Below, in pieces: positions 5,193 through 44,803 of a stretch of 44,865 nt of DNA (position 1 is its first letter; every line of letters starts with the position of its first letter). The notes beneath the pieces were generated by a model, which was given only the letters and a program-made list of their open reading frames with translations, was not told where the DNA came from and searched no databases. This stretch comes from a virus: positions 1-44,865 of IMG/VR virus record IMGVR_UViG_3300024259_000061. One strand, 5' to 3'. The position numbers were made by a program, and so were the translations under genes.

Positions 5193-5212
5193 TAACAACA
5201 CCTACTTTAGTT

Positions 5213-5761
5213 TTACATTCGTAATCCTCTAGTTCCTGCAACTTTTCTTTCCGAAGAAGCTTGGCTTCTATTGATATCTTTTCTTACTTTTTCTTCTCGT
5301 ATCTTTTCATACTCATTTCTTGTTGCAAGTATAGTAAGAAATGCTTCAACAATGATATTAGGTTGATCTAGCAACCCACCACTATTAGGAAATATCCCGT
5401 ATTCACTTGCATATGTTTCCCATAGCAACAAGAGATCAAAACTCTGATCCATCATTGATAGTGGGCATATGGCTTTATAATACAACTGCATAACCTCAAA
5501 AAGAGGTGGAGGATTTTTCATCTCCTGTTGTATATCTGACAATATATAAATAAAATCTTCTGGATTAACTCCAGATTTTTCTTCAAATCCTGTCATATTG
5601 CTCTGGTTGTCAAATGTTGGAATTCCAATATCTTTATCTCCATCTTGAAAACAAACTAAAACTTTATCTTCCTTCTCTTTACAACCAGAGCATTTGTATA
5701 AATTAGCTCTACCAATTTCTTCACTTTTCCACAAAGAAAAGTAAACTAGTATCTCTAACTT
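5213..5761 (-). CDS. Frameshift extension of the tail assembly chaperone (gpT-like part)
   Basis: This frame is entered by a -1 shift from the preceding gene at the A9 run. Translation would continue as K-L-E-I-L-V-Y-F and run 182 residues to the stop overlapping the tape measure start region, giving a fusion of about 329 residues. The only initiation codon near its 5' end is a TTG at 5734 without a good ribosome binding site, which favours frameshifting over independent initiation. It holds a zinc-knuckle-like CSGC near its start and a helical region with an Arg/Lys-rich tail. In lambda and many other phages the G/GT pair sits just upstream of the tape measure gene and chaperones it during tail assembly. 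The family is inferred from position and the frameshift, not from sequence similarity I recognise. Confidence 0.72.
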   Translation of the reverse strand, partial: KLEILVYFSLWKSEEIGRANLYKCSGCKEKEDKVLVCFQDGDKDIGIPTFDNQSNMTGFEEKSGVNPEDFIYILSDIQQEMKNPPPLFEVMQLYYKAICPLSMMDQSFDLLLLWETYASEYGIFPNSGGLLDQPNIIVEAFLTILATRNEYEKIREEKVRKDINRSQASSERKVAGTRGLRM

Positions 5762-5767
5762 TTTTTT
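5723..5767 (-). promoter_or_regulatory. Programmed -1 frameshift signal (slippery A run plus hairpin)
   Basis: In the upstream frame the codons GAA AAA AAA AGT TAG contain a consensus A AAA AAA heptamer at 5767-5761, just before the stop. The downstream frame is exactly -1 relative to it. A 7-bp hairpin (ACTTTTC / GAAAAGT, 6-nt loop) lies at 5742-5723, about 18 nt after the heptamer; that is longer than the usual spacer, so its role is uncertain. Confidence 0.7.
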
Positions 5768-6201
5768 TCTCCCTCTCGGAGTTTGCTATTATCAACAGCA
5801 ACATCCCAAATCTCGTTAACAGCTCCTGCTGGCATAAAATTGAGAGCCTCTTTAAGAATCCATTCCTGATCTAAGATTTTAACCATACTCTCATCAGTGT
5901 CTTTAATATCAGGTTTCGATTTCTCATTATCAGCGAAAAAAGAATTGGGAAACCAAAAATTTTCAATCTTAGTCACTGTATTCAGCCACTCAGCAGTATC
6001 AGCAGAATCTAATTTTCCTGAATGTAAATCTCTGTACCCTGATCGACCTTCTCTACCAGCAGCAGAATAACGTGATAACGTTTTATTTGCTTCGTGGTGA
6101 GTTTTAGGTTTAACCCAAAATACTGTTTGTTCGTTCTTGTCCTTTTTTCCCCTATCATCTTCTAAGATGTAGGGAACTGGCTCAAGTGTTATTCCTCGCA
6201 T
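5755..6201 (-). CDS. Tail assembly chaperone (gpG-like)
   Basis: A 148-residue protein between the tail tube region and the tape measure gene. A start at 6201 follows a good AAGGAG site. The sequence is charged, with a Trp-rich middle (EWLNTVTKIENFWFPNSFF) and a C-terminus ending in EGEKKS, encoded by the slippery A9 run. Position, size and the -1 slippery sequence at its 3' end match lambda gpG-type chaperones, which are made alone and, at low frequency, as a fusion with the next frame. No fold-level similarity could be tested. Confidence 0.72.
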   Translation of the reverse strand: MRGITLEPVPYILEDDRGKKDKNEQTVFWVKPKTHHEANKTLSRYSAAGREGRSGYRDLHSGKLDSADTAEWLNTVTKIENFWFPNSFFADNEKSKPDIKDTDESMVKILDQEWILKEALNFMPAGAVNEIWDVAVDNSKLREGEKKS

Positions 6202-6246
6202 ATCTGAATCTCCTTATTTCTATTACTATTCTGTAACATTATAATT

Positions 6247-6275
6247 GCACAGTAACACTTATAATGTTACTGTGC
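6247..6275. repeat. Perfect 11-bp inverted repeat
   Basis: GCACAGTAACA and its exact complement TGTTACTGTGC flank a 7-nt loop, between the 79-aa gene and the chaperone gene. There is no T run on either side, so it does not look like a Rho-independent terminator. GTAACA words also occur just outside the stem. It could be an RNA processing site or an operator. Confidence 0.6.
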
Positions 6276-6327
6276 ATGTTTTATGTTACTATCACTGTTT
6301 ATTCTAGATAGACAATCAAATTTCTAT

Positions 6328-6567
6328 CTACTTATCTAAGTTTTTCATATTCCAGGGAATATAATCAATTGTTTTTCCTTCGTTATTCATAATATAAATC
6401 CATCTTGGAGTTTCTCCATTAATTTCTAGATGTATATTATCTCTATCTAAATCACCTTCAAGATGAAATGTGATTCCTTTACTTGATTGAGTCTTATGAA
6501 ATCTTTTACACTCGAAATAAGACTCTCTTACTTCTCCATCATTTTTACTTATTGTTTTTACTATCAT
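6328..6567 (-). CDS. Hypothetical protein, 79 aa
   Basis: An ATG start follows an AGGTAGGAACAT site. The protein is hydrophilic with an aromatic beta-strand pattern (ITFHLEGDLDRD, PRWIYIMNNEGKTIDYIPW). It lies between the tail tube gene and the tail chaperones, so a tail-related or late accessory role is possible. I do not recognise a family. Confidence 0.65.
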   Translation of the reverse strand: MIVKTISKNDGEVRESYFECKRFHKTQSSKGITFHLEGDLDRDNIHLEINGETPRWIYIMNNEGKTIDYIPWNMKNLDK

Positions 6568-6610
6568 ATGTTCCTACCTTTCTGTTTTATCTGACTATCT
6601 ATCTAAATAA

Positions 6611-6778
6611 TTATAATAAAGTTACACAACATCTAAGACATAAATATTCAACAAAATTATCTAATGTTTTTTCTTTGGATTCGTCATTTAAAAAATCTTT
6701 ATAACAATATCTAACCCAATCTTGTTGATCTCCTACAGTCTCTATTTTGTGTTCATCAATTTTAAACTTTTCCTTCAT
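6611..6778 (-). CDS. Small hypothetical protein, 55 aa
   Basis: The 55-codon frame starts at ATG 6778 behind AGGAGATAGGAAG, a strong ribosome binding site. The product starts MKEKFKIDEHKIE and ends LCLRCCVTLL, with three cysteines near the C-terminus. It sits after the tail tube terminator hairpin and before the 79-aa gene. Function unknown. Confidence 0.6.
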   Translation of the reverse strand: MKEKFKIDEHKIETVGDQQDWVRYCYKDFLNDESKEKTLDNFVEYLCLRCCVTLL

Positions 6779-6804
6779 TTATCTTCCTATCTCCTACTTA
6801 TAAA

Positions 6805-6834
6805 TTAGAGATGCTATTTTATTAGCATCTCTAA
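6805..6834 (-). terminator. Terminator-like hairpin after the tail tube gene
   Basis: A 12-bp perfect stem (TTAGAGATGCTA / TAGCATCTCTAA, 6-nt loop) lies 20 bases past the tail tube stop. On the minus strand it is followed by a short TTTAT tract, so it may be a partial terminator or an mRNA 3' end that stabilises the abundant tail tube message. Confidence 0.6.
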
Positions 6835-6853
6835 ATTCTTTATTTACATATAC

Positions 6854-7879
6854 TTAGATCCCTCGATCTAAACCATCAAGTAAAACAACCTCGATAGCTG
6901 CATTAGTACCATCATATGCTCCGATAAATGGCAAGTCAAGAGCTACTTCATCATCATAACTCATATCTACACCAGTATATCTTGCATTAGTTTTAATGCT
7001 AATTTCACCAGAACTAGCAGGAGTTGCAGAAGCTCCCCAATAAAAATTAAGGGCAACATCAGTTCCGTTCATGAAATTATCTATTTGTTCTTTTCCACCT
7101 ACTGTAGCAGCACCCCAAGGAATCTTGACTGTTCCTTCAACAGTAAAATCCATAAGGATATGTTTCTGTACAGTATTACTTTCGTAATTTTTCTGAACCG
7201 CATTATTAGACACTGTAATAGACCAGCTATCAATATTAGTAGCTGTTCCTGCCACAGTAGCACCAGCAGTACTTGCTCCCCAAATAAGAGGATCATTAGT
7301 ATCAAACTGTAACGTGGTACTTCCAGCATTATAATCAGTTTCTAAATCAGCACCAACCCACTCGATAACAGCTTTAAGTGGAGTATTTGATTCAGCAGTT
7401 AATGTTATTGATCTTACAATAGCTCCTTTGATTCTCTGAGCAGTTGAAGAAGAACCACACTGCATACGTTTTAAAACGTTAGCAAATCTTTCTACTTCTA
7501 CTCCTTCAGTACATGTAGGAGAATTATAAGTTTTAGTGAATTCGTCTGTTCCTGTTCCTTCAGTTGTGCCTTTCTGAAAAAGCATCCACAAAGGAAACGC
7601 TAAATTGTAAGCATTAGCATCGAATTCCCAAGAAGTTGTAGGTTGCTTTACTCCTTGCTGGAATTCATATCCAGAACCAGTTCTACGAACAGCTAAACCA
7701 ATAGCTTTTCGTGCATCAATTATAGTTTGCCCTGGATCATAATGAGGTTGATTAGTTAAGGGCCAACAGTAATCATTACTAGCAACCCCTATAGCTCCAG
7801 TTCCAAATGCAAAAGTAGCTGTTATTGAAGCAGCAGGGCCAGCACCATAAAGTATCTGCCAGGGAACAATTGTCGACAT
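6854..7879 (-). CDS. Major tail (tube) protein
   Basis: A 341-residue protein rich in Gly, Ala, Thr and Ser, with the alternating beta-strand pattern of phage tail tube proteins. It starts MSTIVPWQILYGAGPAAS and ends DGTNAAIEVVLLDG. Middle segments such as SITLTAESNTPLKAVIEWVG and the late ALNFYWGASATPAS are typical of tube proteins, in which a beta-barrel forms stacked hexameric rings. It lies directly upstream of the chaperones and tape measure and has its own downstream hairpin, as expected for a highly expressed structural gene. Assignment rests on composition, length and order. Confidence 0.75.
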   Translation of the reverse strand: MSTIVPWQILYGAGPAASITATFAFGTGAIGVASNDYCWPLTNQPHYDPGQTIIDARKAIGLAVRRTGSGYEFQQGVKQPTTSWEFDANAYNLAFPLWMLFQKGTTEGTGTDEFTKTYNSPTCTEGVEVERFANVLKRMQCGSSSTAQRIKGAIVRSITLTAESNTPLKAVIEWVGADLETDYNAGSTTLQFDTNDPLIWGASTAGATVAGTATNIDSWSITVSNNAVQKNYESNTVQKHILMDFTVEGTVKIPWGAATVGGKEQIDNFMNGTDVALNFYWGASATPASSGEISIKTNARYTGVDMSYDDEVALDLPFIGAYDGTNAAIEVVLLDGLDRGI

Positions 7880-8218: not shown

Positions 8219-9958
8219 TTATCTTGCTGAACTAACTGTTAATACTTTGCTAGTCACTTTATTTAATCTTGTTTTTCTAGCTCTGCCAATAGCTCCACAT
8301 ACTAAACATCTGTACGAAGAATATTTCCCCACATTTGTCATATAGTTCCCTTTCCAATCTAGATCAGTGGAACCACAAACAGCACAACCACTAGCATCTC
8401 CTTCTACGTAAATACCCATATTAGGATGAGACTTCATCCAAGGTCTTAATTCGTAATAAACTTCTTCCAATAATGCTACATCCTGAATATTATAAGTAAG
8501 CATATTATCTAATGCTTCTTGGTTTCCGTTATCGCAGTCTATCCATAGATCAAAATCAGTATCTATTTTATTTTTATTTCTTAAAAATTCTCCCAAATAA
8601 TCTAACTTATGACAAGTAAAACTAGCTATTTTTCTTGATTGTTTTAGTGTATCTATTGTAAGAAATGGTGTAGTAGGTTTCATTTTATAATAAATAAATC
8701 TAGCATTCAACATTCTATGATCAAAACGATCACAATTATGCATAGGATAACCATTAGCAAAATAAGTTTTTGTAGAAGTTCCCATAACTGCTACTTTTCT
8801 ATTCCCTACTTTTTCTATTTTTTCTATTATAACCGTCTTAGAATACTTACTTTTTAAACAACCAAAAGCATCCCAATTAATCTTATCAATTAATCTTTTT
8901 ATTTGTAATTTTCCCAGAATTTCTAACATACCCCATTTTCCTCCTAAAAATCCTGTATATAAGGTATCTTGCTTACCTAATCCTCCAGTTTTAGGGCTTC
9001 TTTCTTTAGAAATTTTTAAGTTTAGCTTCTCACAATATCTTATAGCCTGATCCCAAGCTATTCCAGGTCGCTGACAAAAATCAATACCAAAGCTTCTTCC
9101 AGAATGCTTTAAAGTTCCTTCACCTGTAATAAATCCAGACAGCCAACCAGATTCATAAGAAGTATCTTTTTCCCAAGTATTTATAAATTTCTCTACCCTC
9201 TGTCCTGGTTTAAGATTTTTTGTCTCACACCATCTATAATCTCTACCCTTAGCTGCTAATTTTAGCCAAGGATGCTCAGGAGTGGTTATAACAGAGTCCC
9301 CATTACTTAAAGTAACCTCTAAACACTCCCTCTCTTCTACAGAATGATGAGTAATTATAGACCTCTTCATTTTCCTTGGCCTATTCTTACCATTATTTTC
9401 CTCAAATCCTACTAACTCTTGCCCTTTTTGTAATTTACCAGCAGGTATCCATTCTAGATTAGTAGTTAACACTGGAGTAGATTCTTCAACACAATTATGA
9501 CCTATAACAATGTCAGCCTCCTCCAATAGTTCCCATATCCCACCTAAAATCGGCTTGTCGTTACGACATTTTACTTGTTCTGGTGTAAGAAGAGCATCAA
9601 AATACTCACTTCCATTTAGCCATTTAGCAGCCCAAGATAAGATACACCAATCTTTAATTATCTTATCATAAGATATCCTTTGTTCTCCTAGTCTCCAAGA
9701 GTACACATGCATAGGTAATGTTTCTATATCGAATAATAATACTTTTGGAGCTTTATCTGAATCTATATTTAACTGTTTCTTAAGTGCTCTCCAATGACCT
9801 CTTATTCCTTCTCCAGTAAAAGTATACATTGGAAAAGTAGAAGTCATCTCTAACGCAATAGTATCGTATGTTTTATCTAAGTGACCATAATGTTTCGATA
9901 AAACTAGAGCGTTAACTACAGACAACACTTTTTTATCCTCTCTCCACAGATTAATCAT
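8219..9958 (-). CDS. DEDDy 3'-5' exonuclease-like protein with intein and zinc ribbon
   Basis: A precursor of 579 residues. The mature protein of about 326 residues has an N-terminal helical region (1-65), then a DnaQ/PolB-type exonuclease fold: Exo I VLLFDIETLP (D77, E79), Exo II IGHN-CDRFD (D413, rejoined by splicing) and Exo III YNIQDV (Y489, D493). A C-terminal CxxC...CxxC zinc ribbon spans residues 525-554. It would digest or proofread DNA ends. Its place among tail and connector genes is odd for a replication enzyme and may mean a role in DNA packaging or repair late in infection, or simple insertion of the gene there. No polymerase domain is present. The ATG follows AGGAG 5 nt upstream. 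Confidence 0.85.
   Translation of the reverse strand: MINLWREDKKVLSVVNALVLSKHYGHLDKTYDTIALEMTSTFPMYTFTGEGIRGHWRALKKQLNIDSDKAPKVLLFDIETLPMHVYSWRLGEQRISYDKIIKDWCILSWAAKWLNGSEYFDALLTPEQVKCRNDKPILGGIWELLEEADIVIGHNCVEESTPVLTTNLEWIPAGKLQKGQELVGFEENNGKNRPRKMKRSIITHHSVEERECLEVTLSNGDSVITTPEHPWLKLAAKGRDYRWCETKNLKPGQRVEKFINTWEKDTSYESGWLSGFITGEGTLKHSGRSFGIDFCQRPGIAWDQAIRYCEKLNLKISKERSPKTGGLGKQDTLYTGFLGGKWGMLEILGKLQIKRLIDKINWDAFGCLKSKYSKTVIIEKIEKVGNRKVAVMGTSTKTYFANGYPMHNCDRFDHRMLNARFIYYKMKPTTPFLTIDTLKQSRKIASFTCHKLDYLGEFLRNKNKIDTDFDLWIDCDNGNQEALDNMLTYNIQDVALLEEVYYELRPWMKSHPNMGIYVEGDASGCAVCGSTDLDWKGNYMTNVGKYSSYRCLVCGAIGRARKTRLNKVTSKVLTVSSAR
8735..9493 (-). other. Intein in the exonuclease (253 aa, LAGLIDADG type)
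   Basis: Residues 156-408 begin CVEESTPVLT (block A), contain TPEH (block B TxxH), and end YFANGYPMHN before extein Cys (blocks F and G). WLSGFITGEGTL matches the LAGLIDADG block C, and the second motif region (YTGFLGGKWG) looks degenerate. The endonuclease part is short, so it may be decaying. The insertion falls inside the Exo II catalytic motif (IGHN/CDRFD), so the exonuclease can be active only after splicing. Confidence 0.92.
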
Positions 9959-24089: not shown

Positions 24090-25457
24090 CTAGGTATTAC
24101 GAAAGCCACGAAAATTTGCTCCTTCAAAATATAAATTGGATATTTGATCACATTGTTTATCTAACATTTTAACGTGATAATTCCTCAAAAGTTCACAATT
24201 TACCCCGAACAATTCAGCGTGAACTTCTTCATCTGTATAATCAGTAAAATTAACACTAATAAGATCACTATTTTTATGTTTATTCTCATAAAAATCCTCA
24301 ATACCATCCAATAAACCATCTTTTATTGCTTTATTATATAGTTCAGTACCAGGATAACTACAAACAGGTCTAATATTCCTCATTTGCCCTTGATCATCAT
24401 GCTTAAGGAGGAATTCCTTTCCTTTATGCAAAACATCAAAAGATTCTCCAGGTTGTCCATAAATTATATTCAACCCAGGAGATATTCCAACCTCTAAAGT
24501 TTTAGCAACTCCAAAATCTACCTGTTTTACAGTAAGTTTTTTATTCATTACTTTAAGAATTTCATCATCATAAGATTCTATCCCATAATTAATAAACACA
24601 CAACCAGATTTTTTCATGGATGTGAGAAGCTCTGTATCTACCCTATCTAACCTACCATTACACCAATATTTTATATTAAGATCAGCCTCAAGAAAAGCAT
24701 TAGATAATTCTAACCCACGTTTCTTTGATGCTATAAGTAACTCATCAGAAAAGAAAATATAATTAATACCATATTTCTTTTTTAAATATTTTATCTCTTC
24801 TACTACAGATTCTGATGATCTTAATCGAATTCCCTTATCTAGCCTAAAACAAAAATTACATTGAGCTACACAACCATATGAGGAAAGAACAGAAAAACAT
24901 CTTTCATGATCCTCTATATGTGGTTGTCTCATAAGTGCATAGTAATCCATAGGATAAAGATGCCAAGCAGGAAATGGGATAGTATCAACATCTTTTATAA
25001 GTTTTACTGGAGGAGTCTGATAATAATTATTATCTACTCCAATCCAAGCAACACCATTAGTTATTTCTCCATTTAAATAATCTTTTATAGTATTAATTCC
25101 TTCTCCTATAAATATAGCATCAATATTAAATTTTCTAAGAAAATATTCTGGTTCTGGAGCAAACATATGACCACCAGCTAACACAGTAGGTCTATCTTTT
25201 AAAGAATTAATAGCTTCCATAATACTTTTCATCTTATTATACTGTATATAACCACCACAAAAAGATATTCCAATATAATCAAAATGATTATTCTCTAAAT
25301 ACTTAACTAAATGAGATTCTGGATAATGAAATTGATCTTGAGGATAATTTTCAACATAATGACCTTCTTGTCCCACTACAGAAGCTATATGCATTAATCC
25401 AAAATTAGGCCAAGTTATAAAAGAACCATTGTCATAAGAAATAAATAGAAACCTCAT
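24090..25457 (-). CDS. B12-binding-domain radical SAM protein
   Basis: 455 residues. Residues about 1-130 form a cobalamin-binding-like Rossmann domain (YIGISFCGGY, TVLAGGHMFAPEPEYF, IDAIFIGEG), although the DxHxxG cobalamin ligand motif is absent. The radical SAM core follows with CVAQCNFC (C196, C200, C203) binding the 4Fe-4S cluster, then GIESYDDEIL and a P-G-L-N-IIYG strand. Family members methylate or rearrange unreactive carbons in lipids, antibiotics, tRNA and glycans. Close to the sulfotransferase-like and NanE-like genes, a glycan or peptide substrate is plausible but unproven. Confidence 0.85.
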   Translation of the reverse strand: MRFLFISYDNGSFITWPNFGLMHIASVVGQEGHYVENYPQDQFHYPESHLVKYLENNHFDYIGISFCGGYIQYNKMKSIMEAINSLKDRPTVLAGGHMFAPEPEYFLRKFNIDAIFIGEGINTIKDYLNGEITNGVAWIGVDNNYYQTPPVKLIKDVDTIPFPAWHLYPMDYYALMRQPHIEDHERCFSVLSSYGCVAQCNFCFRLDKGIRLRSSESVVEEIKYLKKKYGINYIFFSDELLIASKKRGLELSNAFLEADLNIKYWCNGRLDRVDTELLTSMKKSGCVFINYGIESYDDEILKVMNKKLTVKQVDFGVAKTLEVGISPGLNIIYGQPGESFDVLHKGKEFLLKHDDQGQMRNIRPVCSYPGTELYNKAIKDGLLDGIEDFYENKHKNSDLISVNFTDYTDEEVHAELFGVNCELLRNYHVKMLDKQCDQISNLYFEGANFRGFRNT

Positions 25458-26210: not shown

Positions 26211-26912
26211 TTAAGCTCTAAATCTATGTGTTCCTACCTTATTTCTTGTATATAAAAGCTCCAATAACTCTATATCTTTTAGCACAAAATTTATCTCATA
26301 GTATTTTAGTATTTTATTAATAGTGTCTGTAGTATTATTTATTACAGAATTATAAGTTATCTTTAGACATTCACCATCATAATCACTCCAGTTATTATAA
26401 AATAACTTTAAATCATCTACTATACCTAATCTTTCGCTTTCCTCTAACCACTCACTTTCTGTCATATCTTTTCTAAAATTATCATAAACATTAAAAAAAT
26501 TTATCCTTGGGATTCCTCTTATAAAAGCTCTTCTGTACGCAAAAATAACATCATGATAATCTCTTAATAATATCACTTTTTTTACATCATTTAATAGAAT
26601 TAAATTATTTCTTGTTGGAAGAATATGATTTTTATACAATCTGTTTTTTCTACTAATTTCTATTATATCATTTTTATTTATCTCTACACAATCAGGATGC
26701 CATTTATGTATAAATTTATAATCATTAGAAGTAATTCTATCCCAATAAAAACCTTTTTGGTAATTATTTTTACTATCATCTACTATATGTAAATACCTCT
26801 TGCTTCTAAAGTCCAATACACCACTTTCTAATATACCATAATAAGATAAAAATCTACTTAGAGTGTAAAATAAAGAACTACTTGCTGATTTTGGAATTGG
26901 TATTATAATCAT
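26211..26912 (-). CDS. Sulfotransferase-like protein 1
   Basis: 233 residues. IIIPIPKSASSSLFYTL is a 5'-phosphosulfate loop (PKSxSSSL), and VILLRDYHDVIFAYRRAF is the 3'-phosphate binding motif. YLHIVDD and an AHK/HKWHP region lie between. PAPS-dependent sulfotransferases have this order. It is clearly paralogous to the next gene (same motifs, similar length), so a tandem duplication. The acceptor could be a glycan on the virion or host surface. Confidence 0.8.
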   Translation of the reverse strand: MIIIPIPKSASSSLFYTLSRFLSYYGILESGVLDFRSKRYLHIVDDSKNNYQKGFYWDRITSNDYKFIHKWHPDCVEINKNDIIEISRKNRLYKNHILPTRNNLILLNDVKKVILLRDYHDVIFAYRRAFIRGIPRINFFNVYDNFRKDMTESEWLEESERLGIVDDLKLFYNNWSDYDGECLKITYNSVINNTTDTINKILKYYEINFVLKDIELLELLYTRNKVGTHRFRA

Positions 26913-26924
26913 ACTTCTACTCTC

Positions 26925-27587
26925 CTACCTAGTATATAAAATTTTTGGTAACTCCGCTTCTTCTACAGTTAAATTTAAATTAAAAAATTTAGATACATCA
27001 TTTAAACAATCAATTATATTATTTACAATATCACTAAAATGAAATAATAATACATTATCACCCTTGAAATCTTTCCACCCATCATAAAATAACAATAAAT
27101 CATCCAATATTCCAAGCTCCTTCGATTTTTCTATCCAATCTTTATCATTATCTATCCCTATAAAATCTTTCATATAATGTTTATTTATTTTATCTAATAA
27201 AAAAGCTCTTCTATACGCTAATAATATATCCTCTGGATTTCTTAATAAAATTATATTTTTAACATTCTGTAATAATAATTTATTATTAACAGTAGGAGGA
27301 ATATGTTGTTTATATAAATTACTTTGTTTACTAACTTCGACAATATCTTCTTTTTTTAGTTCTCTTACATCATTGTGTAAATAATGAATATAACTATAAT
27401 CTTCTGGGATATTTCTTTTCCAGAAATAATCATCCTTATTTAAAATAGTATCATCAACTATGTGCAGAAATTGATCTTGAAGTCTTAGTCTACCACAAGC
27501 TCTATTTCTCCCAGTTTTAATCAATAATACTTTTACAATAGAAAAAAAAGATGTACTAGCACTTTTTGGTATAGCTGTTATAAGCAT
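26925..27587 (-). CDS. Sulfotransferase-like protein 2
   Basis: 220 residues, paralogue of its downstream neighbour. LITAIPKSASTSFFSIVKV binds 5'-phosphosulfate and IILLRNPEDILLAYRRAF binds the 3'-phosphate. FLHIVDDTIL and YIHYLHNDVREL match the paralogue at the same places. The ATG is preceded by AGGAG inside the end of the portal gene, so the gene is probably coupled to the portal. Confidence 0.82.
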   Translation of the reverse strand: MLITAIPKSASTSFFSIVKVLLIKTGRNRACGRLRLQDQFLHIVDDTILNKDDYFWKRNIPEDYSYIHYLHNDVRELKKEDIVEVSKQSNLYKQHIPPTVNNKLLLQNVKNIILLRNPEDILLAYRRAFLLDKINKHYMKDFIGIDNDKDWIEKSKELGILDDLLLFYDGWKDFKGDNVLLFHFSDIVNNIIDCLNDVSKFFNLNLTVEEAELPKILYTR

Positions 27588-27592
27588 ACTTA

Positions 27593-30529
27593 TTATTCTC
27601 CTATTTTCCCATCCCCATCACCATCTTTTTTACCTGCTGACGGATTTTTAGGTTCCTCAACTTTAGGAACAGTCTTTATTTCATTTTTTATTTTCAAAAG
27701 TTCCTCATACCAATTATAACCAGACCTCTCAGCCAAAGTTTGATGAGAAGCAATCCCAATCTCTTTATGAATCTGTAATACTTTAGCCTGATCTAAGAAA
27801 TCTTCTTTAACAACATCAGGAAATACAACCGAAACTGGAGTATCTTCAGTGTTTATAGTAATACTCTCATGCTTTCCTTCTAGTATAGGAGAAACTTCTT
27901 CTACTATTTCAGCATTAGTAGCTCCATCCATATACATAGTATTTATTTTACTCATTGCTTCGATAATAGTTTCCTTTCTAAACTTAGGAACTTTTACCAT
28001 CTTTTTAATTTTTCCAGCACTAACAGCAGCTCGAATAACAACTTGAAACATCTTCTTAAAATTAGCATTCCAGAAATCTTGATTATCTGTTATCATCTGA
28101 CTAAAACCAGTTTCACCCTTACGTATAGAATTTCCAGATATACAAATTTTATTATTAAATCTAGTAACAATAATACCATTAGGAACTGATACACACCAAA
28201 CTTTCCCTTTATAATGCTCCTTCGTAATATTATGTTTTTTCGTAAGTATTTCTCTTCTATAATTATTAGGAATAGACATTTGAACAAAATAACACCTTCT
28301 TCTGCTACTATCTTTATTAAATTGAGAACCAATATAAGATTTATATCCAAGCCTAATAGCAATTAAAAAAACATCTTCTGCTAATGATTCTGAAGTAGTT
28401 GTATATCTTCTACCAGTATTACCATCAATATTACCCCTAACATAATGACCATCACTTTCTAATAAAGACTTATAAAATAATGATAATTGATCTTTAGGTA
28501 AAATTTTAATAAACTCAGGTAATTTTTTATTATAACAATATAAACCAATATTTTCTTTAAGCCAATTAGCTAAATCTATATTTTTTAATGTCCAAATTAT
28601 ATCGCCATCAATTTTTGTGTATTTTAAAAACCCCATACTTTCTAATATAGGTGAAAAATAATCAATTTTTCTACTTTTCTTTACATGAAAACTTATGTAA
28701 TGCATATCATATACACTATCTTTATACCTCTTAGTATAAAAACAAACACAACCATCTCCAATGTATATACCAAGAAAATCTAAAAACAAATTACCATCAT
28801 AAAACTTATCGCCTATTTTTATTCCATTAAATTTTTTATAATCATCACAATCATCTGTCCATTCTACCGAATTCATGATATAAGGTCTACTAGAATAAAA
28901 ACTTTCTGCTAATTGATCCATCCTAGTTTTTTTCCACTTAGTTTCTATAGTGTTATCTTTTTTAGTAGTTTTTTTAGTAGAATCTGATATTAACATATCA
29001 TGATTAGGAGTAAATAATCCTTCTGCTGATCTTGATTTTAATCTATACATATCGCCATCATAATCATAAACAAACTTCTCATCTATTCCTTGCCACTCAA
29101 ACAAATTTGTATCAGGATTAATTGTACCAGCTTTATCTGATTTATTTATATTATAGTAGTTCTTCCAACCACTATCGGTTAATAATTCTGTATCACTAGA
29201 ATGGCATGAATAATTTTGCTCATCCAAACGTTGATCTAATAAATAAACAGGAATCCCTACTCCAGCACCTATTGAATAAAGAATACTTAATCCATCTTCT
29301 TTAACATCATCAGCTTGAATTTTTGCACTCTCTATGCGATACCTAACTCTATCTGTTTCAATTATTTGTTGCCCACCTTTAGGAACTCTGGTTCTTACTG
29401 TACCAGTTTCTTTCCCTCTACCTCTGATACTTTTGATCCAAACGACTTTAGAACGCTCATGATTAAGTCGGATACGATCTAATAACCAATCTTCGTAATA
29501 CTTGATATTCTTAAGAATAGAATCCATAGGAACACGACCACGAACTTCATCAGAGTCTCCATACTTTATAAACTGGACTAACTTATCTTCCTCTAAATTA
29601 CCATGAACCTTAGATGCCTTCCCGTCAATCTCATCATCTAACTGATGATAATAATCAATATCAGCATAATGTTGTTCTTTTACTCCATAATCCTCAGACC
29701 ATACTCTCTTATACGCAAAAATTGTTTCTACATCATCTGGATGGGTTTCGATTGAATGAACTTCTTTGGGCCTAATTCTACGAACTTTAACCCTACCAGT
29801 TTTTTTGTTAATAAAATAGAGAATAAAATATTCTCCTTCTATATAAGATTTTCTAACAAAATCTTTTTGCCTCAAATCCATCTTATTCAAATCCCAAAAA
29901 TCTATTAGTAATTTCTGGACTTCTTCATTAGCAGCAGAAAACTTAATTCCTCTACCTATAGTAAAATACTGGATATTATTGACAATAGACCTTGCATGGG
30001 GATTAGTTCTAGTTTTATTAAATGCTGCGTCTTGTTTGTCCCACAATTGTTCTAAAGATTGATAGCGATCTAAATCTTTTATGACTCCAAGACCTAGTTG
30101 CCTCCAACCTTGGTCATTACCTTCCTTTATTTCCTTAATATATCTATAAGCACGATCAAGTTCCTTTTTTCTACCTTTATATATTTCCCTAATTTCTGCA
30201 TCAGACATATCTAGAATCTTTGCCATAGAATTTTCTTCTGTCTCATAAAGATAACTATAGCCCTCTTCAGAATATTTAAATTCTGGATCATTACGAGAGG
30301 TGAGGGTATTACTTTTGTAAAATTCTCTTTCCTCAGCTAATATAGAACTAACAGTCTTTTGAACTTCAGTTTTAACACTGTTTTTAATATTTCTTACCTC
30401 GTCTTCATGCTCCTTCTTAATTCTATTGATAGTCTGGGTCTTCTTCTTATTCTCTAAGTTTCTTTGTCTCTTAAAATCCTTAGATACTTCTTCTTTTATT
30501 TTTTCCAACTTTTTCTTACTCATTAACAT
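27593..30529 (-). CDS. Portal protein, intein-containing
   Basis: 978-residue precursor from ATG 30529 (AAGGAG 11 nt upstream; a GTG at 30541 is too near that site). After removal of a 359-residue intein the portal is about 619 residues. The N-terminus is a Lys/Glu coiled coil. The core includes HARSIVNNIQYFTIGRGIKF, a strand-rich region and, after the splice site, SIRKGETGFSQMI and a helical clip/wing region. The exteins rejoin as DEQNYS-SIRKGE, the NYSS motif seen in lambda-type portals. A dodecamer would form the DNA entry vertex. The gene follows the terminase C-half directly. Confidence 0.88.
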   Translation of the reverse strand: MLMSKKKLEKIKEEVSKDFKRQRNLENKKKTQTINRIKKEHEDEVRNIKNSVKTEVQKTVSSILAEEREFYKSNTLTSRNDPEFKYSEEGYSYLYETEENSMAKILDMSDAEIREIYKGRKKELDRAYRYIKEIKEGNDQGWRQLGLGVIKDLDRYQSLEQLWDKQDAAFNKTRTNPHARSIVNNIQYFTIGRGIKFSAANEEVQKLLIDFWDLNKMDLRQKDFVRKSYIEGEYFILYFINKKTGRVKVRRIRPKEVHSIETHPDDVETIFAYKRVWSEDYGVKEQHYADIDYYHQLDDEIDGKASKVHGNLEEDKLVQFIKYGDSDEVRGRVPMDSILKNIKYYEDWLLDRIRLNHERSKVVWIKSIRGRGKETGTVRTRVPKGGQQIIETDRVRYRIESAKIQADDVKEDGLSILYSIGAGVGIPVYLLDQRLDEQNYSCHSSDTELLTDSGWKNYYNINKSDKAGTINPDTNLFEWQGIDEKFVYDYDGDMYRLKSRSAEGLFTPNHDMLISDSTKKTTKKDNTIETKWKKTRMDQLAESFYSSRPYIMNSVEWTDDCDDYKKFNGIKIGDKFYDGNLFLDFLGIYIGDGCVCFYTKRYKDSVYDMHYISFHVKKSRKIDYFSPILESMGFLKYTKIDGDIIWTLKNIDLANWLKENIGLYCYNKKLPEFIKILPKDQLSLFYKSLLESDGHYVRGNIDGNTGRRYTTTSESLAEDVFLIAIRLGYKSYIGSQFNKDSSRRRCYFVQMSIPNNYRREILTKKHNITKEHYKGKVWCVSVPNGIIVTRFNNKICISGNSIRKGETGFSQMITDNQDFWNANFKKMFQVVIRAAVSAGKIKKMVKVPKFRKETIIEAMSKINTMYMDGATNAEIVEEVSPILEGKHESITINTEDTPVSVVFPDVVKEDFLDQAKVLQIHKEIGIASHQTLAERSGYNWYEELLKIKNEIKTVPKVEEPKNPSAGKKDGDGDGKIGE
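28130..29206 (-). other. Intein in the portal protein (359 aa, LAGLIDADG type)
   Basis: Residues start CHSSDTELLTDSGWKNY (block A), with TPNH (block B), FLGIYIGDGC (first LAGLIDADG) and LLESDGHY (second), then WCVSVPNGIIVTRFNNKICISGN before Ser. Both LAGLIDADG motifs keep the acidic Asp, so the homing nuclease may still cut. The residue before the terminal Asn is Gly instead of the usual His, which may slow Asn cyclisation. Confidence 0.93.
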
Positions 30530-30544
30530 CTGAAACCACACTCC

Positions 30545-32038
30545 TTAATAATAATCTTCATCATAGAATGGATCACCGCCATCACCATACTTATCCGATG
30601 TTCTTACGTCTTTATCTAGGTCATCGTAAAATGTGTCCTCTTCATCAGTTGGTTCTGATTTATGTGATCTCTCATCAACATCTATGAATTCAATTTCATT
30701 ATTACATGCATTGAATACAGAACCAGCCAAAGACTGAACAACATCATCCGTTCCTCGTATGGGCTTACTCACCAATTCTATGTTATTTCTTCGAATTAAT
30801 TCTAACCTCAACATTTCTTTCAAAAGGTGCTTATGGTAAGGGATTGCTATCCTCTTCTCATACATTGCATCTTTCAAAGACTGCATAGCAGCAGTATATT
30901 GTCTACCAGTTGATTCCCTTCTTGTTCCTTCTCTTTGTCCTTTATCGCTTTTGATTTCATGATCTACCAATAACTTAAAAGAAGTCCTATCTATACTTAA
31001 TTGACCTACAGTAAAACCACTGTCTCTAAGTATCTGACTAATCATAGTTGATTGGAATTGATCAAAACTTATAAGATTTATAAAAAATCCCAAATCCTGC
31101 AAAGTAAAAATAATATCTTGAATATCAGAAAATAATATCTCCTCCCCTTGTTTGGAAGAAACCCTCCCAACAAAATCAACCTGAACAAATGGAACTCTAA
31201 CAGTCTCCTTCACTACATCTCCGCTTATTATACTAGTCTTATCTATATTAGTAAAATAAGGAACGTGACACATTGAAATTCCTACAGCATCCTTTTTAGC
31301 AGCTAAATCTATATGAATATATCTAGCAAAATCATCATTACACTTAAACTCTGGATTAAACTTTAGAGTTTTTTGATCAAAAGGATTTTTAAGGTCTTTC
31401 TTTAGGGCCTCATTTATCTTGCCCTTATCCCTAAAATACGGAGATAACGCCATCATAGAATGTCCAGCTAAATCTCTTAAAGCTCTTTCTGGATCATTCT
31501 GGAACCTATCAATCAACTCTATAGGTATATCTAAAGTATTATTCTCTTCTCCATTTGAATTCTTGGGAATCTCTTCCCCCTCAGGAATAACTCTAAGTTC
31601 ATCTATATCGAATATAAACTTATCACCTGTCCAAATAGTTTCTCCTTGCCAAATATTAGGTTTGGTTTCCCACAACCTTAACCTCTTCCAAAATATCTTA
31701 GAACCCTTACCTTGATCTATTGCTTCTTTTATCTTCTTCTCTAAAAAATCATCTGGATATCTAGGGGAAGAAATCATAACAATCATACCTGGAACTTTCC
31801 CTGCCCTCATAAACCTTGAATTCATACGAGTCCAGATAGCATTATACATTTCTTCTGCTGCATCATATGTATCTATAAAACCTGCACGTTTTGAGTCCTC
31901 AATAACTTCAAGGAAGTTAGCCTCATCTACAGAATTATGAACTACCATACCATTAGCTATATAGTTATTATTTGGAGTAACATTTATAATATCGTATGTT
32001 TCCTCTTCCCCAACATATTTTATATTTTCAATCCTCAC
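30545..32038 (-). CDS. Large terminase C-half, with N-terminal split-intein fragment
   Basis: 497 residues from a GTG at 32038. Residues 1-35 are an IntC ending NYIANGMVVHN, then Ser36 begins the C-extein SVDEANFLEV. The extein holds the end of Walker B (VDEANF) and the RNase H-type nuclease: IHIDLAAKKDAVG (D), ISFDQFQSTM (D) and GTDDVVQSLAG (DD). The C-terminus is acidic. Joined to the N-half it gives a terminase of about 660 residues. The GTG has a weak ribosome binding site and lies just after the methyltransferase gene. Confidence 0.9.
   Translation of the reverse strand: MRIENIKYVGEEETYDIINVTPNNNYIANGMVVHNSVDEANFLEVIEDSKRAGFIDTYDAAEEMYNAIWTRMNSRFMRAGKVPGMIVMISSPRYPDDFLEKKIKEAIDQGKGSKIFWKRLRLWETKPNIWQGETIWTGDKFIFDIDELRVIPEGEEIPKNSNGEENNTLDIPIELIDRFQNDPERALRDLAGHSMMALSPYFRDKGKINEALKKDLKNPFDQKTLKFNPEFKCNDDFARYIHIDLAAKKDAVGISMCHVPYFTNIDKTSIISGDVVKETVRVPFVQVDFVGRVSSKQGEEILFSDIQDIIFTLQDLGFFINLISFDQFQSTMISQILRDSGFTVGQLSIDRTSFKLLVDHEIKSDKGQREGTRRESTGRQYTAAMQSLKDAMYEKRIAIPYHKHLLKEMLRLELIRRNNIELVSKPIRGTDDVVQSLAGSVFNACNNEIEFIDVDERSHKSEPTDEEDTFYDDLDKDVRTSDKYGDGGDPFYDEDYY
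31934..32038 (-). other. Split intein C-fragment (IntC, 35 aa)
   Basis: MRIENIKYVGEEETYDIIN, then NNNYIANGMVVHN before Ser+1. YDI...V...N(N/H)NYIANGMVVHN is a standard block F/G, and length and start match IntC pieces of split inteins such as DnaE-type. It has its own start codon and no upstream intein sequence in its frame. Confidence 0.9.
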
Positions 32039-32040
32039 AA

Positions 32041-32778
32041 TTAATCGCCTAAATCCTTAATTCTTTTATTGGAAATATCTACATATTCTTCTGAAGTATC
32101 TATCCCAATAAAGTTTCTTTTAGTATTTATACAAGCTACAGCAGTAGTACCACTTCCTACTGCAAAATCCAAAACAGTTTCATCCTCATTTGTGTAGGTC
32201 TTAATTAGGTACTCCATCAATAATACTGGTTTTTGGGTTGGGTGTATTTGTATTGTTCCCCTATCAAATTTTAATAGATTTTTAGGGTACTTCATATTAC
32301 TACTTGGATTATTCATATAACTTTTTGTAGACGTAGGTAAATTACTTTCATTTTTTCTTCTTCTTATTCCTTTTCCCTGCCCATGATTTTTTTTGCCTCT
32401 TATCATTTGTGGATTATAGGTTGGCATCTTAGGATAAAATATGTGAATATACTCAATATAATTTAAAGGTCTTTTTTTAGCTAATGCAGGATTACTCGGT
32501 CTAGTTTTTTCAAACACCCAATCATATTTATATTCATCTATATTACTGATTCTTAAGTAACTACTAAATGGTTCAGAACCAAACAACACAATAGCACCAT
32601 TATCCTTAACAATTCGCTTTAACTGTTCCCACATCAAATCAAACGGTATAACACTATCCCATTTACAAGCTGTTGTTCCATAAGGAGGATCAGTTATTAT
32701 AGCGTCAATACTATTATCATCAATATCTTTCATTACTTCTAAACAATCACCACAATAAATTTCATTTAATTTAAGCAC
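32041..32778 (-). CDS. DNA adenine/cytosine-amino methyltransferase (beta class) between terminase halves
   Basis: 245 residues. DAIITDPPYGTT (motif IV, residues 25-36) comes before a basic target region (GKKNHGQGKGIRRRK) and the SAM site VLDFAVGSGTT (motif I, 203-212), preceded by IHPTQKPVLLMEYL. This order is that of beta-class N6-adenine or N4-cytosine methyltransferases. GTG start with GGAG upstream, inside the HNH stop (ATGAGTGCTTAA overlap), so it is coupled to the N-half. It may protect phage DNA from host restriction or from a nuclease linked to the intein. Confidence 0.9.
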   Translation of the reverse strand: MLKLNEIYCGDCLEVMKDIDDNSIDAIITDPPYGTTACKWDSVIPFDLMWEQLKRIVKDNGAIVLFGSEPFSSYLRISNIDEYKYDWVFEKTRPSNPALAKKRPLNYIEYIHIFYPKMPTYNPQMIRGKKNHGQGKGIRRRKNESNLPTSTKSYMNNPSSNMKYPKNLLKFDRGTIQIHPTQKPVLLMEYLIKTYTNEDETVLDFAVGSGTTAVACINTKRNFIGIDTSEEYVDISNKRIKDLGD

Positions 32779-34465
32779 TCATTTTCTCCTCTATTTTATT
32801 CATAAAATACTCTATATAATACAATCTCTTATCTTGATTCTTTACTTTAGAATGGCACTTTACACATAAACAAATAAGATTTTCAGGTTCATTATTTAAT
32901 TTATCAAAATCAATATGATGAACATCTATCCTATCATTTAATAAATCTTTATTACATAATTGACAAGTATAATCATCCCTATTTTTAATGTAATTTTTTA
33001 ATTCCTTAGTAAAACCACCACCATAGTCTTTATATAGCCAAGAAACTCCACCATTCCAATGAACATTTTTATCTCCACAAAATCTCTCAGACATCTCTTT
33101 TCTCAACTCATCAGCTTTTTCTTTTCCATACCTATCTTCCCAAGTTATTCCAATTCTTTTTTCATTAGCTTGATTTATAGATTCTACTGTATGTTTTCTG
33201 CCATAAAAACCATTCTTCCCCCCAGAAACAGCTTTAGAAATGTTTTCTTTCCATTCTTCTGTTAATCTTCTACCAGTTCTTACTATACTTTGTCGTTTAC
33301 AAGTTACTTTAGATAATATTTTACCTTTATTTAAATCAGACATTTTTTTCTTATATTCATCTGAATGAAATTTTATCTTATTCGGAACTTGCCCATCAGG
33401 ATTTCTCTCAAAGAATTTCTTCCTCATTATTTCCTTTTGATTATTACCAACAATAGGAATATAAAAATAATCCTCCTTGACCTTAAAATAATCAATACCA
33501 TGAGTTTTTACAAAATGACTACTATTTAACTGTAGAAATTCTTTCCCACAAATTGGACATATAGTATTATCACAAACTTCACAAAAAGTAACAAGATCGT
33601 CAAACTCTTTTAATTCCATAAGTTTTTTGTAAACAAAATTACCACCATCTCTAACCAAAAAATAATGATTTTCAGTTGCTTTTATTTTTTGTCCATTCTC
33701 TAATTCGATCTCAAAAACTTTCTGCTTTCCTTTCGATATACATGTTCCTGTAGATTTCTCCACACAATCTTTACTTTCAGAAAAAGAGTATAAATCTACT
33801 TTTTTATTAACTAAAGAATCAATTCTTTTACTTCCATCTACAGTCAATATTTCAGCATCCCTAGTTAAGCATCCTCCGTATAAATCGAAACCGAGTGCTG
33901 AAATCTCTGAACTAGTACCAGGAAAAATAGATATCTTAGCTTTAGGTATCCTTAGTTCTCTTTTTACTCTTGGATCAGGAGGAAAATAATCCATAAAAAA
34001 TGGTGATCCTGCTACTTTAGGGTATACCTTACCAAAAGTAATCTTTCTTGCCTGTACTGTCGTAACAGACATATTGATCAATGCAATATCTGAATCTGGA
34101 TTTAATCCATAAAATTTCTGTGGATTATATTTTGATAATAATTCTATTATCATCAAAAATTGAAGAACTGATGCAACTTCTGATTTTCCCGCACCAATAG
34201 AGGCTACAAGACATACTAAATTTATATCTCTCGTTTTCCTCTCTTCCCATAATTCATAAATAACATCCTTCCACTTAGGGAAAAGGATATCTTTCATATT
34301 CAAATAATACTTACTATCAATCAACTCTTCTATAGGAGTATCCGCTAATTCTCTCGCTCTTTCTGGAGTCCAAGGAAATTTAGACTGTACAGAAGATTTA
34401 TCTAAATATCCAGAAATCCAATTTTTTGAGTATTGCTGTAATAGCTCCCTTGCATCATTAGCTAT
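32771..34465 (-). CDS. Large terminase N-half fused to IntN and HNH endonuclease
   Basis: The frame is open from 34465; a TTG at 34324 is the only good start codon, but the upstream 47 codons (KFPWTPERARELADTPIEEL) look conserved, so the true start is likely upstream (see the finding at 34466-34492). Order: N-extein with Walker A ASIGAGKSE near 34,204-34,178, then a Walker B lead-in FDLYGG, then IntN from Cys at 33871, zinc fingers, NUMOD3-like repeats and an HNH core (CQLC, VHHIDF, LCVKCHSK) at the end. Together with the C-half it forms the packaging ATPase. The HNH part would drive homing. Confidence 0.88.
   Translation of the reverse strand: MANDARELLQQYSKNWISGYLDKSSVQSKFPWTPERARELADTPIEELIDSKYYLNMKDILFPKWKDVIYELWEERKTRDINLVCLVASIGAGKSEVASVLQFLMIIELLSKYNPQKFYGLNPDSDIALINMSVTTVQARKITFGKVYPKVAGSPFFMDYFPPDPRVKRELRIPKAKISIFPGTSSEISALGFDLYGGCLTRDAEILTVDGSKRIDSLVNKKVDLYSFSESKDCVEKSTGTCISKGKQKVFEIELENGQKIKATENHYFLVRDGGNFVYKKLMELKEFDDLVTFCEVCDNTICPICGKEFLQLNSSHFVKTHGIDYFKVKEDYFYIPIVGNNQKEIMRKKFFERNPDGQVPNKIKFHSDEYKKKMSDLNKGKILSKVTCKRQSIVRTGRRLTEEWKENISKAVSGGKNGFYGRKHTVESINQANEKRIGITWEDRYGKEKADELRKEMSERFCGDKNVHWNGGVSWLYKDYGGGFTKELKNYIKNRDDYTCQLCNKDLLNDRIDVHHIDFDKLNNEPENLICLCVKCHSKVKNQDKRLYYIEYFMNKIEEKMSA
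33584..33871 (-). other. Split intein N-fragment (IntN, about 96 aa)
   Basis: Starts CLTRDAEILTVDGSKRI (block A) and holds KIKATENHYFL (block B, TxxH). The end near 33584 is set where the splicing domain gives way to the zinc-finger/HNH extension (FCEVCDNTICPICG). The extein boundary is FDLYGG / Cys. Confidence 0.88.
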
Positions 34466-36293: not shown

Positions 36294-36635
36294 TTATCTT
36301 TTCTTCTCATAATAAAAAACTCCATCAAATGGTTTTATCTGTATTACTCCGTAATCTATACCAACTTTATTAATATAAATAAGTTTTATTCTTTTATGGA
36401 TTGTCTTTAGATTCTTCCTAAATTGCTCCAGTGTATTCGATCTTTTATAATGATTACATCTTCTACAACTAGGCATTAAGTTATTAAAATCATTTATATT
36501 TGTAGTAATAAGGTGTGCTCTAGCTTTAGGGATAAGATGATCTACCTGCATATCTTTATACATAATAACTCTACCGCAATAAGCACAGTGGTTATTGTAT
36601 TTATTATAAACTCTAATTCTTATCTCTTTTTTCAT
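36294..36635 (-). CDS. HNH endonuclease, classic type
   Basis: 113 residues. CAYCGR, QVDHLIPKARAH, NLMPSCRRCN give zinc Cys pairs and the catalytic His. Small HNH proteins beside terminases are needed with the large subunit for DNA cutting in several phages (HK97 gp74 type), so it may be a packaging factor and not a homing enzyme. Overlaps the preceding gene by 4 bases (ATGA). Confidence 0.85.
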   Translation of the reverse strand: MKKEIRIRVYNKYNNHCAYCGRVIMYKDMQVDHLIPKARAHLITTNINDFNNLMPSCRRCNHYKRSNTLEQFRKNLKTIHKRIKLIYINKVGIDYGVIQIKPFDGVFYYEKKR

Positions 36636-43403: not shown

Positions 43404-43592
43404 TTAAACCTCCGATTTTATTAAATTCCTAAAATCTTTTTTACTAATATAAATTAGCTGATATTCACTATTTTTTTCAGTCAATCCACTAATTAAAATA
43501 TAGTCTGGTTTCTCAGCATTTTTTATAATTATTTCTTTTATAAATTGGTTTCCAAAACAAGTTTTAATTTTGCATTTATTTTTTAACTTCAC
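43404..43592 (-). CDS. Small hypothetical protein, 62 aa
   Basis: GTG with GGAGG. KPDYILISGLTEKNSEYQLIYISKKDFRNL has a beta-beta-alpha pattern. Between the radical SAM and glycosylase-like genes, with tight overlaps on both sides, so probably co-translated. Unknown function. Confidence 0.6.
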   Translation of the reverse strand: MKLKNKCKIKTCFGNQFIKEIIIKNAEKPDYILISGLTEKNSEYQLIYISKKDFRNLIKSEV

Positions 43593-44803
43593 TTTTTAAC
43601 CTCCAATAATTTAAAAGCAAAATTATAAACTGATAAATTAAAACTTTGATTCTCTTTTAATTGCTTTGAACTGTAAAAACTTTTGTTTGTATTGTTTTCT
43701 ATTAAATCAGAATTTTTTATATTTTTTATTGTTTCTGAAATATTTGATTCTCTATATAAAGCTAGATTATAAAGATTCAAAGAAAATATATCTTTTTGAT
43801 TTTGTTTTAAAAAAGTTAATGTTTTTTTATAGCTTGTTTTGTCTTCACCTATCAATCCAATTATTAAGTTAGGTATAATTCCTAACTTTGATTTTTTCAA
43901 GTTGTGCATTGCTTTGTTAATAATTTTTTCGGTTTGTGGTTTGTTAAATTTTTTCAGAATATTATTATTATAAGATTCTAGACCGAATTCAACGTATTTT
44001 ACCTTTAAATTTTCAAGATTTTTTACAAAACGTTTTTTTGAAAGTAAGTTTGCGGTTGTTTGAACTATGAAACCTTGAAAATCAGGATTGAATCTTTTTA
44101 CGTGGTTATATATAGATTTTAATAACTTATAATTTGGATTTTGACCGAAAGTTTTATCATTTAAATAAATTAGTTTAAAATCTAGATTAATAAAACTTTT
44201 ATATTGTTTTATTATGTTTCTTATGGGAATTGATTCAATTTTATTTTGTATAGTGCAAAATTTACAATTATGAGTACACCCATTGCTTAGGGTTAACCTT
44301 GGTACAGTTTTATAATTTTGGAATAGTGAAAAATCAAGATCATAAACATAATTAATTTTTAAACTTTCAATAAAACTTTTTACAGTTTTAAAAATTTTAA
44401 TGTTTTGATTATTTTTAAAATAGGAAAAATCAATATAACCGCCCAAAACAAAATTTTGATCTAAATTAGATTCGACTATATTTTTAATGTATTGCTTGTT
44501 TACGTCTAAAGCGGAGAATAAAACCAAATCAAAATTATTTGATTTTATAAAATTTATTGTTTCTTCTATATCCTTTATAATATGTAAGGAAGAAACAAAA
44601 TTAGAATTTTTTAAACTTCCATTTATTTCTGAAATCCACAATGGCAACTCAAAAAAATCTTGATTCTTATAAAATCCAAGATTTTGATTTTGTTTATAAA
44701 ACTTTTCATAAAATCTTGAATCAATAAAATTTTTTTCTTGATTCAAAAAATTATTTGAAAATTGACAGAATAAAACTTGTTTTGTTGTTTCTTGATTTTT
44801 CAC
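43589..44803 (-). CDS. Radical SAM protein
   Basis: 404 residues, GTG start 7 nt after GGAGG. The core motif LSNGCTHNCKFCTIQ (C176, C180, C183) binds the 4Fe-4S cluster; VEFGLESYNNNIL and the IIPNLIIGLIGE strand are typical of B12-type radical SAM enzymes. The N-terminal region (1-160) has a Rossmann-like strand pattern (FDLVLFSALD, NFVLGGYIDF) of the kind seen in cobalamin-binding domains. The substrate is unknown; being in an operon with a glycosylase-like protein, nucleic acid or a modified base is a reasonable guess. Confidence 0.82.
   Translation of the reverse strand: MKNQETTKQVLFCQFSNNFLNQEKNFIDSRFYEKFYKQNQNLGFYKNQDFFELPLWISEINGSLKNSNFVSSLHIIKDIEETINFIKSNNFDLVLFSALDVNKQYIKNIVESNLDQNFVLGGYIDFSYFKNNQNIKIFKTVKSFIESLKINYVYDLDFSLFQNYKTVPRLTLSNGCTHNCKFCTIQNKIESIPIRNIIKQYKSFINLDFKLIYLNDKTFGQNPNYKLLKSIYNHVKRFNPDFQGFIVQTTANLLSKKRFVKNLENLKVKYVEFGLESYNNNILKKFNKPQTEKIINKAMHNLKKSKLGIIPNLIIGLIGEDKTSYKKTLTFLKQNQKDIFSLNLYNLALYRESNISETIKNIKNSDLIENNTNKSFYSSKQLKENQSFNLSVYNFAFKLLEVKK

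What the first reader, a model, noticed from the sequence alone, without database searches (positions are those of the whole stretch)
30545..34465. Large terminase split by a trans-splicing intein, with an HNH nuclease and a DNA methyltransferase in the break
Seen directly: the N-half (Walker A, ending FDLYGG) continues into IntN and then a zinc-finger/NUMOD3/HNH nuclease; the C-half gene starts with a 35-residue IntC (VVHN) followed by SVDEANF, the terminase Walker B, and the nuclease domain. Joining gives an intact ATPase-nuclease. A beta-class methyltransferase gene (DPPY) sits between the halves, overlapping the HNH stop. Known: fractured genes with split inteins and endonuclease genes in the gap occur in phage-like metagenomic sequences. 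A methyltransferase in the gap next to an intein-linked HNH resembles a restriction-modification-like selfish unit, where the methyltransferase may protect the genome from the HNH.
Basis: partly seen in the sequence, partly recalled or inferred. Interest (0 to 1): 0.92.

Follow-up and report, generated by a model that had tools for sequence, protein, structure and literature searches.

The report
Trans-spliced phage terminase with methylase cargo
A virus of bacteria keeps its DNA-packaging motor gene in two pieces that should be rejoined at the protein level by a split intein carrying a homing nuclease, and a common phage DNA methylase gene has settled in the gap, probably as a passenger rather than as the nuclease's partner.

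Summary
On the minus strand, window 34465-30545 encodes a large terminase (TerL) in two genes. The N-half ends at FDLYGG, followed by IntN and a NUMOD3-HNH nuclease. The C-half opens with a 35-residue IntC (NGMVVHN) followed by S-VDEANF, the Walker B segment. All splicing residues are present, and relatives give the exact empty site one codon wide. An m6A-type beta-class methyltransferase (MTase) gene lies between the halves. Two viral contigs carry an uninterrupted mini-intein at the same site, so this is a mobile TerL intein that gained an HNH module and became split.

The restriction-modification reading is not supported. The 80 nearest MTase relatives (51-71% identity) show no relative of this HNH and no split intein. 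The 80 nearest HNH relatives show no intein and no such MTase. MTases of this family often sit beside terminase or portal genes without any intein. A homing site is already destroyed by the insertion, so methylation is not needed for self-protection. Sister phages also have TerL in two genes (without inteins) and carry unrelated genes in the gap, so passengers there are normal.

Verdict: a new variant of a known kind, with the MTase as cargo that homing would co-transmit. Interest is moderate.

The parts
33872..34465 (-). N-extein of TerL: ATPase half with Walker A (34181-34204), ending FDLYGG at 33872; start codon uncertain (ATA 34465 or TTG 34324)
   Evidence: homologous to the ATPase half of TerL in L008-L027
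33581..33871 (-). IntN splicing domain (97 aa), Cys1 at 33871, block B T..H (IKATENHYF) at 33659-33685
32771..33580 (-). Endonuclease module fused to IntN: weak zinc-finger-like CxxC, NUMOD3 repeats, HNH (CxxC..HHID..N..CxxCH), stop 32771-32773
32041..32778 (-). Beta-class DNA methyltransferase (DPPY, m6A-type), GTG start, overlaps the HNH gene by 8 bases; cargo in the gap
31934..32038 (-). IntC (35 aa): block F EETYDIINV, block G NGMVVHN
30545..31933 (-). C-extein of TerL: S+1, VDEANF (Walker B segment), rest of ATPase and nuclease domain

Best explanation
This is a class 1 intein at the Walker B site of a phage large terminase. It carries an HNH homing endonuclease and has become a natural split intein because its reading frame is interrupted right after the endonuclease by a separate methyltransferase gene. 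The genes overlap or nearly abut in one direction and are probably co-translated (inferred). IntN (still fused to the HNH protein) and IntC pair and splice the two TerL halves through Cys1, Ser+1 and the terminal His-Asn (motifs shown, reaction inferred). That yields a full TerL of about 613-660 aa and releases the IntN-HNH protein. The HNH protein would cut intein-less terL genes of co-infecting relatives at the Walker B codons; repair from this genome would copy everything between the two extein arms, including the methyltransferase (inferred). The methyltransferase is most likely an ordinary orphan phage adenine methylase that shields phage DNA from host restriction. It is hitchhiking in the gap and is not the antidote of the HNH.
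For: Complete splicing motifs and strong IntN and weaker IntC matches. Extein pieces are contiguous with exactly one codon between them in about 14 IMG/VR relatives, which define the empty site. Uninterrupted mini-inteins lie at the identical position in L092 and L093. Another phage with trans-split TerL at nearly the same place is GXN1. The HNH match is intact and its relatives are free-standing phage homing-type genes. MTase relatives: 51-71% identity, next to TerL, TerS or portal, no split intein. The IntN-HNH and IntC frames are in the same register across the insert, and a TGAG repeat flanks it. Sister phages carry unrelated genes between TerL halves. Natural split TerL inteins with measured trans-splicing are published (PMC11766414), as is a split intein with an HNH gene in the gap of phage PolB (PMC6892783).
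Against: No biochemical evidence of splicing, cleavage or methylation. The N-half lacks a normal start codon at a sensible place. Only one copy of the whole arrangement is known, so its stability and function cannot be judged from conservation. The TGAG repeat and register could be chance (about 1 in 3 for the register alone).
Confidence: 0.82

Rival explanations
1. Restriction-modification-like selfish unit: the MTase methylates the site cut by the HNH, protecting the carrier genome and penalising genomes that lose the element.
For: HNH stop and MTase start overlap and both enzymes keep their motifs.
Against: No co-occurrence in the 80 nearest MTase loci or the 80 nearest HNH loci. The MTase is a widespread orphan phage family found beside packaging genes. 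The intein already interrupts its own homing site. PMC11855218 states that HNH endonucleases are not known to associate strongly with methylases.
Confidence: 0.06
2. The split is non-functional decay: the MTase insertion has broken the intein, TerL is not made, and the phage is defective or relies on another terminase.
For: The N-half start codon is irregular. The record is a fragment, so a second terL outside it cannot be excluded.
Against: All splicing, ATPase, nuclease, HNH and MTase motifs are intact, with no internal stops in any of the three genes. No second TerL in 44.9 kb. TerL is essential, and GXN1 shows viable phages can use split TerL.
Confidence: 0.05
3. The HNH is a packaging cofactor like the HK97 gp74-type nuclease, kept for terminase function rather than for homing.
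For: HNH genes beside TerL aid packaging in other phages (PMC10448857, PMC12724721).
Against: This HNH carries NUMOD3 DNA-binding repeats and its nearest relatives are free-standing genes, for example beside a DnaK-like gene in a 636-kb phage. The window holds a separate small HNH gene at 36294-36635 upstream of the packaging genes.
Confidence: 0.07

Closest known systems
Natural split TerL inteins (GOS-TerL, AceL-TerL, Cat-TerL)
   Same: Split inteins that rejoin a phage large terminase in trans (PMC11766414)
   Different: Those have a very short IntN (25-37 aa) and a 104-115 aa IntC; here the break is at the usual endonuclease position (97 + 35 aa) with an HNH fused to IntN, and an MTase gene lies in the gap
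Fractured genes of Dassa et al. 2009 (gp41-1, NrdJ-1, IMPDH-1)
   Same: Essential gene broken by a split intein with endonuclease coding sequence in the break
   Different: As I recall, those carry EDxHD/Vsr-like endonuclease genes (paper not held); here HNH/NUMOD3 fused to IntN plus a methyltransferase
PolB split intein of Pseudomonas phage MIJ3
   Same: Split intein in a phage gene with an HNH nuclease in the gap (PMC6892783)
   Different: Different host gene; the HNH is a separate ORF; no methyltransferase reported there (the term 'methyl' does not occur in the paper)
Mycobacteriophage TerL inteins (Kelley et al. 2016)
   Same: TerL inteins cluster around ATPase motifs including Walker B, and some are active in splicing and homing (PMC5050341)
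   Different: Cis inteins in other terminase families; no split with an MTase
Orphan phage m6A methyltransferases (phrog_67), e.g. Lactococcus phage 66901, Vibrio phage 1.060.A
   Same: Same MTase family, 52-56% identity (71% in contig L107), placed beside TerS, TerL or portal
   Different: Not within a broken gene and not next to an intein
Streptococcus phage GXN1 TerL
   Same: TerL split by a split intein two residues upstream of this site
   Different: No HNH; halves about 60 kb apart; a second split intein with an EDxHD-like nuclease further on

Membership tests
Natural split intein (class 1) | N-terminal Cys/Ser and block B T-x-x-H in IntN | tested here: met
   C1 and IKATENHYF; TIGR01445 E=5e-11, PDB intein matches E=7e-7
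Natural split intein (class 1) | Block F, penultimate His, terminal Asn and Ser/Thr/Cys +1 in IntC on a separate polypeptide | tested here: met
   EETYDIINV..NGMVVHN|S on a separate GTG-started gene; Pfam Intein_splicing 1.8e-4, below the whole-model cut-off as expected for 35 aa
Natural split intein (class 1) | Trans-splicing activity | not testable with these tools
   Needs expression of both halves
Natural split intein (class 1) | Exteins rejoin to a known intact protein at a defined empty site | tested here: met
   Empty site one codon wide in about 14 relatives
HNH homing endonuclease | HNH catalytic core with modular DNA-binding repeats, inside an intein, intron or free-standing | tested here: met
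   NUMOD3 8e-11, phrog_8446 5.7e-13; the CxxC..HH..N..CxxCH pattern found in it is also found in 61 of the 80 relative loci
HNH homing endonuclease | Cuts the empty insertion site | not testable with these tools
   Needs a cleavage assay
Restriction-modification system | Nuclease and methyltransferase recognise the same sequence | not testable with these tools
   Neither specificity known
Restriction-modification system | Nuclease and methyltransferase recur together | tested here: not met
   0 of 80 MTase loci with this HNH type or a split intein, 0 of 80 HNH loci with this MTase; only the nearest relatives and this HNH/MTase type were screened
Beta-class N6/N4 DNA methyltransferase | Motif order IV (DPPY) .. 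I (FxGSGTT) and PF01555 | tested here: met
   PF01555 1.4e-32; DPPY near residue 31, FAVGSGTT near 205

The most novel reading that the evidence does not exclude
The methyltransferase modifies the HNH target, making the intein a homing element with its own addiction/protection module: a restriction-modification system distributed across a split intein in an essential gene.
Probability: 0.06. Interest if true: 0.88.

Novelty: new variant of a known kind. Interest (0 to 1): 0.5.

Why it matters
It shows a full-size HNH intein becoming a split intein by acquiring an intervening gene exactly between endonuclease and IntC, with cis and empty versions of the same site in relatives, so the path from cis to split can be reconstructed. 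It also suggests that split inteins can act as cargo carriers: anything inserted in the gap would be co-transmitted by homing. The related phages, with TerL as two intein-free genes and GXN1 with TerL in three pieces, make the fragmentation of a packaging motor testable.

Tried and rejected
Single-protein scans of viral contigs with the C-half found nothing, because it has only distant relatives. Degenerate junction patterns found just L092 and L093 in IMG/VR; the three matches in bacterial genomes were chance, not terminases. I first suspected that sister TerLs had another intein at the ATPase-nuclease linker; reading the ORFs showed two genes without an intein. Rfam found nothing in the window, so no known intron or ribozyme family explains the break. 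MTase base composition (30.4% GC) is like that of its neighbours, so it gives no sign of recent arrival. A plasmid search with the HNH found only one weak hit. The original fractured-genes paper is not held. Structure prediction was not used because the family assignments were already clear.

Full report
What is there. The window is a whole virus record of 44,865 bases with no other contigs. On the minus strand three genes follow each other. Gene 1 (32771-34324; frame open upstream to 34465) holds the ATPase half of a large terminase, an intein N-part, and a nuclease with NUMOD3 repeats and an HNH core. Gene 2 (32041-32778) is a beta-class DNA methyltransferase with DPPY (PF01555 1.4e-32, phrog_67 1.7e-74); its GTG lies inside the end of gene 1, overlapping it by 8 bases. 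Gene 3 (30545-32038) begins with a 35-residue intein C-part ending NGMVVHN, then SVDEANF (the Walker B segment) and the rest of the ATPase and the nuclease domain. The splicing residues Cys1, block B T..H, penultimate His, terminal Asn and Ser+1 are all present.

More than chance. The C-half matches 319 phage records by tblastn, mostly terminases. In about 14 IMG/VR relatives (34-37% identity in the N-part, 51-56% in the first segment of the C-part) the two extein pieces lie head to tail with exactly one codon between them, the codon of extein residue 1. That is the empty site. Two other viral contigs, L092 and L093, have an uninterrupted intein of 143 residues at the identical position (GG|C...HN|C-V/M-DEANF), without endonuclease or methyltransferase. 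So this position is a recurrent intein site, in line with published TerL inteins that gather near ATPase motifs (PMC5050341).

Split elsewhere too. Streptococcus phage GXN1, an isolated phage, has its TerL broken two residues upstream of this site: the N-half ends in an IntN at 61208-62146, and the C-half with its IntC is about 60 kb away. Its C-half carries a second IntN fused to an EDxHD-like nuclease, and a third small gene starts with the matching IntC and the last terminase segment (HN|SKDISDSLAG). Natural split TerL inteins with measured trans-splicing are known (AceL-TerL, GOS-TerL, Cat-TerL; PMC11766414). Trans-splicing here is therefore the expected behaviour, though untested.

The HNH. 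Its Pfam HNH score is below cut-off, but PHROGs (E=6e-13) and the CxxC..HHID..N..CxxCH pattern identify it. Its nearest relatives are free-standing phage genes, for example next to a DnaK-like gene in a 636-kb phage (39% identity over the module). Among the 80 nearest loci in IMG/VR none showed a credible intein signature in the HNH gene or this methyltransferase nearby. It was probably captured from a free-standing homing gene (inference).

The methyltransferase. It belongs to a common orphan family: 1,123 phage records match. Its best relative (71%, L107) lies directly downstream of a portal gene, L109 lies directly downstream of a terminase, Lactococcus phage 66901 has it between TerS and TerL, and Vibrio phage 1.060.A between TerL and portal. 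Of 99 neighbouring proteins, at least 14 match one TerL family. None of the 80 loci showed a split intein or a relative of this HNH; one (L115) has an unrelated cis intein in a nearby gene. No full-length relative was found in 26 TerL-relative records, only two weak C-terminal motif hits at E about 1e-6. The MTase is therefore a module that often sits at the packaging genes and has arrived in this lineage separately from the HNH.

Sister phages. The nearest TerL relatives (L008-L027, L038, L088) show another surprise: their TerL is two genes, an ATPase gene and a nuclease gene, separated by 0.9-2.6 kb of other genes (exonuclease, muramidase-like, glycosyltransferase-like, sulfotransferase-like) without any intein. 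Genes settle readily in a TerL break in this group, so a passenger needs no special explanation.

How the split probably arose. The frames of the IntN-HNH gene and of IntC are in the same register across the insert, and both junctions hold TGAG (32778-32781 and 32034-32037). This fits insertion of the methyltransferase between the endonuclease and IntC of a formerly continuous HNH intein. It is suggestive only; register alone has a one-in-three chance.

Why not restriction-modification. A homing endonuclease target is destroyed by the element itself, so the carrier needs no methylation (established knowledge of homing elements). The co-occurrence test failed in both directions. A recent paper on HNH elements in phage methylases also notes that HNH nucleases are not known to associate strongly with methylases (PMC11855218). 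The specificities are unknown, so I keep about 6% for this reading.

Weak points. The start of the N-half is unclear: homology runs upstream of the first TTG, the frame begins after a stop at an ATA (34465), and an ATG pair at 34458 is in another frame with an A6 run between. This could be a rare start codon or an assembly indel. The record is a fragment: the tape-measure gene runs off its left end.

Noticed in passing
window 28130-29206, 8735-9493, 3312-4595 (all minus): Three further cis inteins in the same genome: portal protein (LAGLIDADG type), a DNA polymerase exonuclease subunit, and the tape-measure protein; four intein-bearing genes in 45 kb.
   Followed up: partly
L008-L027, L038, L088: A group of phages has TerL as two separate intein-free genes (ATPase and nuclease) with 0.9-2.6 kb of unrelated genes between, so the packaging motor seems to work as a two-subunit enzyme.
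   Followed up: partly
L002, L100, L274 (Streptococcus phage GXN1, PQ819873.1): TerL in three pieces joined by two split inteins, the first two pieces about 60 kb apart; the second IntN is fused to an EDxHD-like nuclease.
   Followed up: partly
L092 (IMGVR_UViG_3300020171_000088) 3086-7758: TerL in two genes and carrying three inteins: at Walker A (LAGLIDADG-like), at Walker B, and in the nuclease gene (FDRFN|C..HN|SVDS).
   Followed up: no
window 34324-34465: N-half of TerL lacks a normal start codon where homology begins; ATG pair in another frame separated by an A6 run, possible indel or rare start.
   Followed up: partly
window 26211-27587 and 24090-25457, 43589-44803: A sulfotransferase-like gene (26925-27587; the preceding gene 26211-26912 is equally AT-rich, GC 0.24) and two genes that look like B12-binding/radical-SAM enzymes, unusual cargo.
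   Followed up: no
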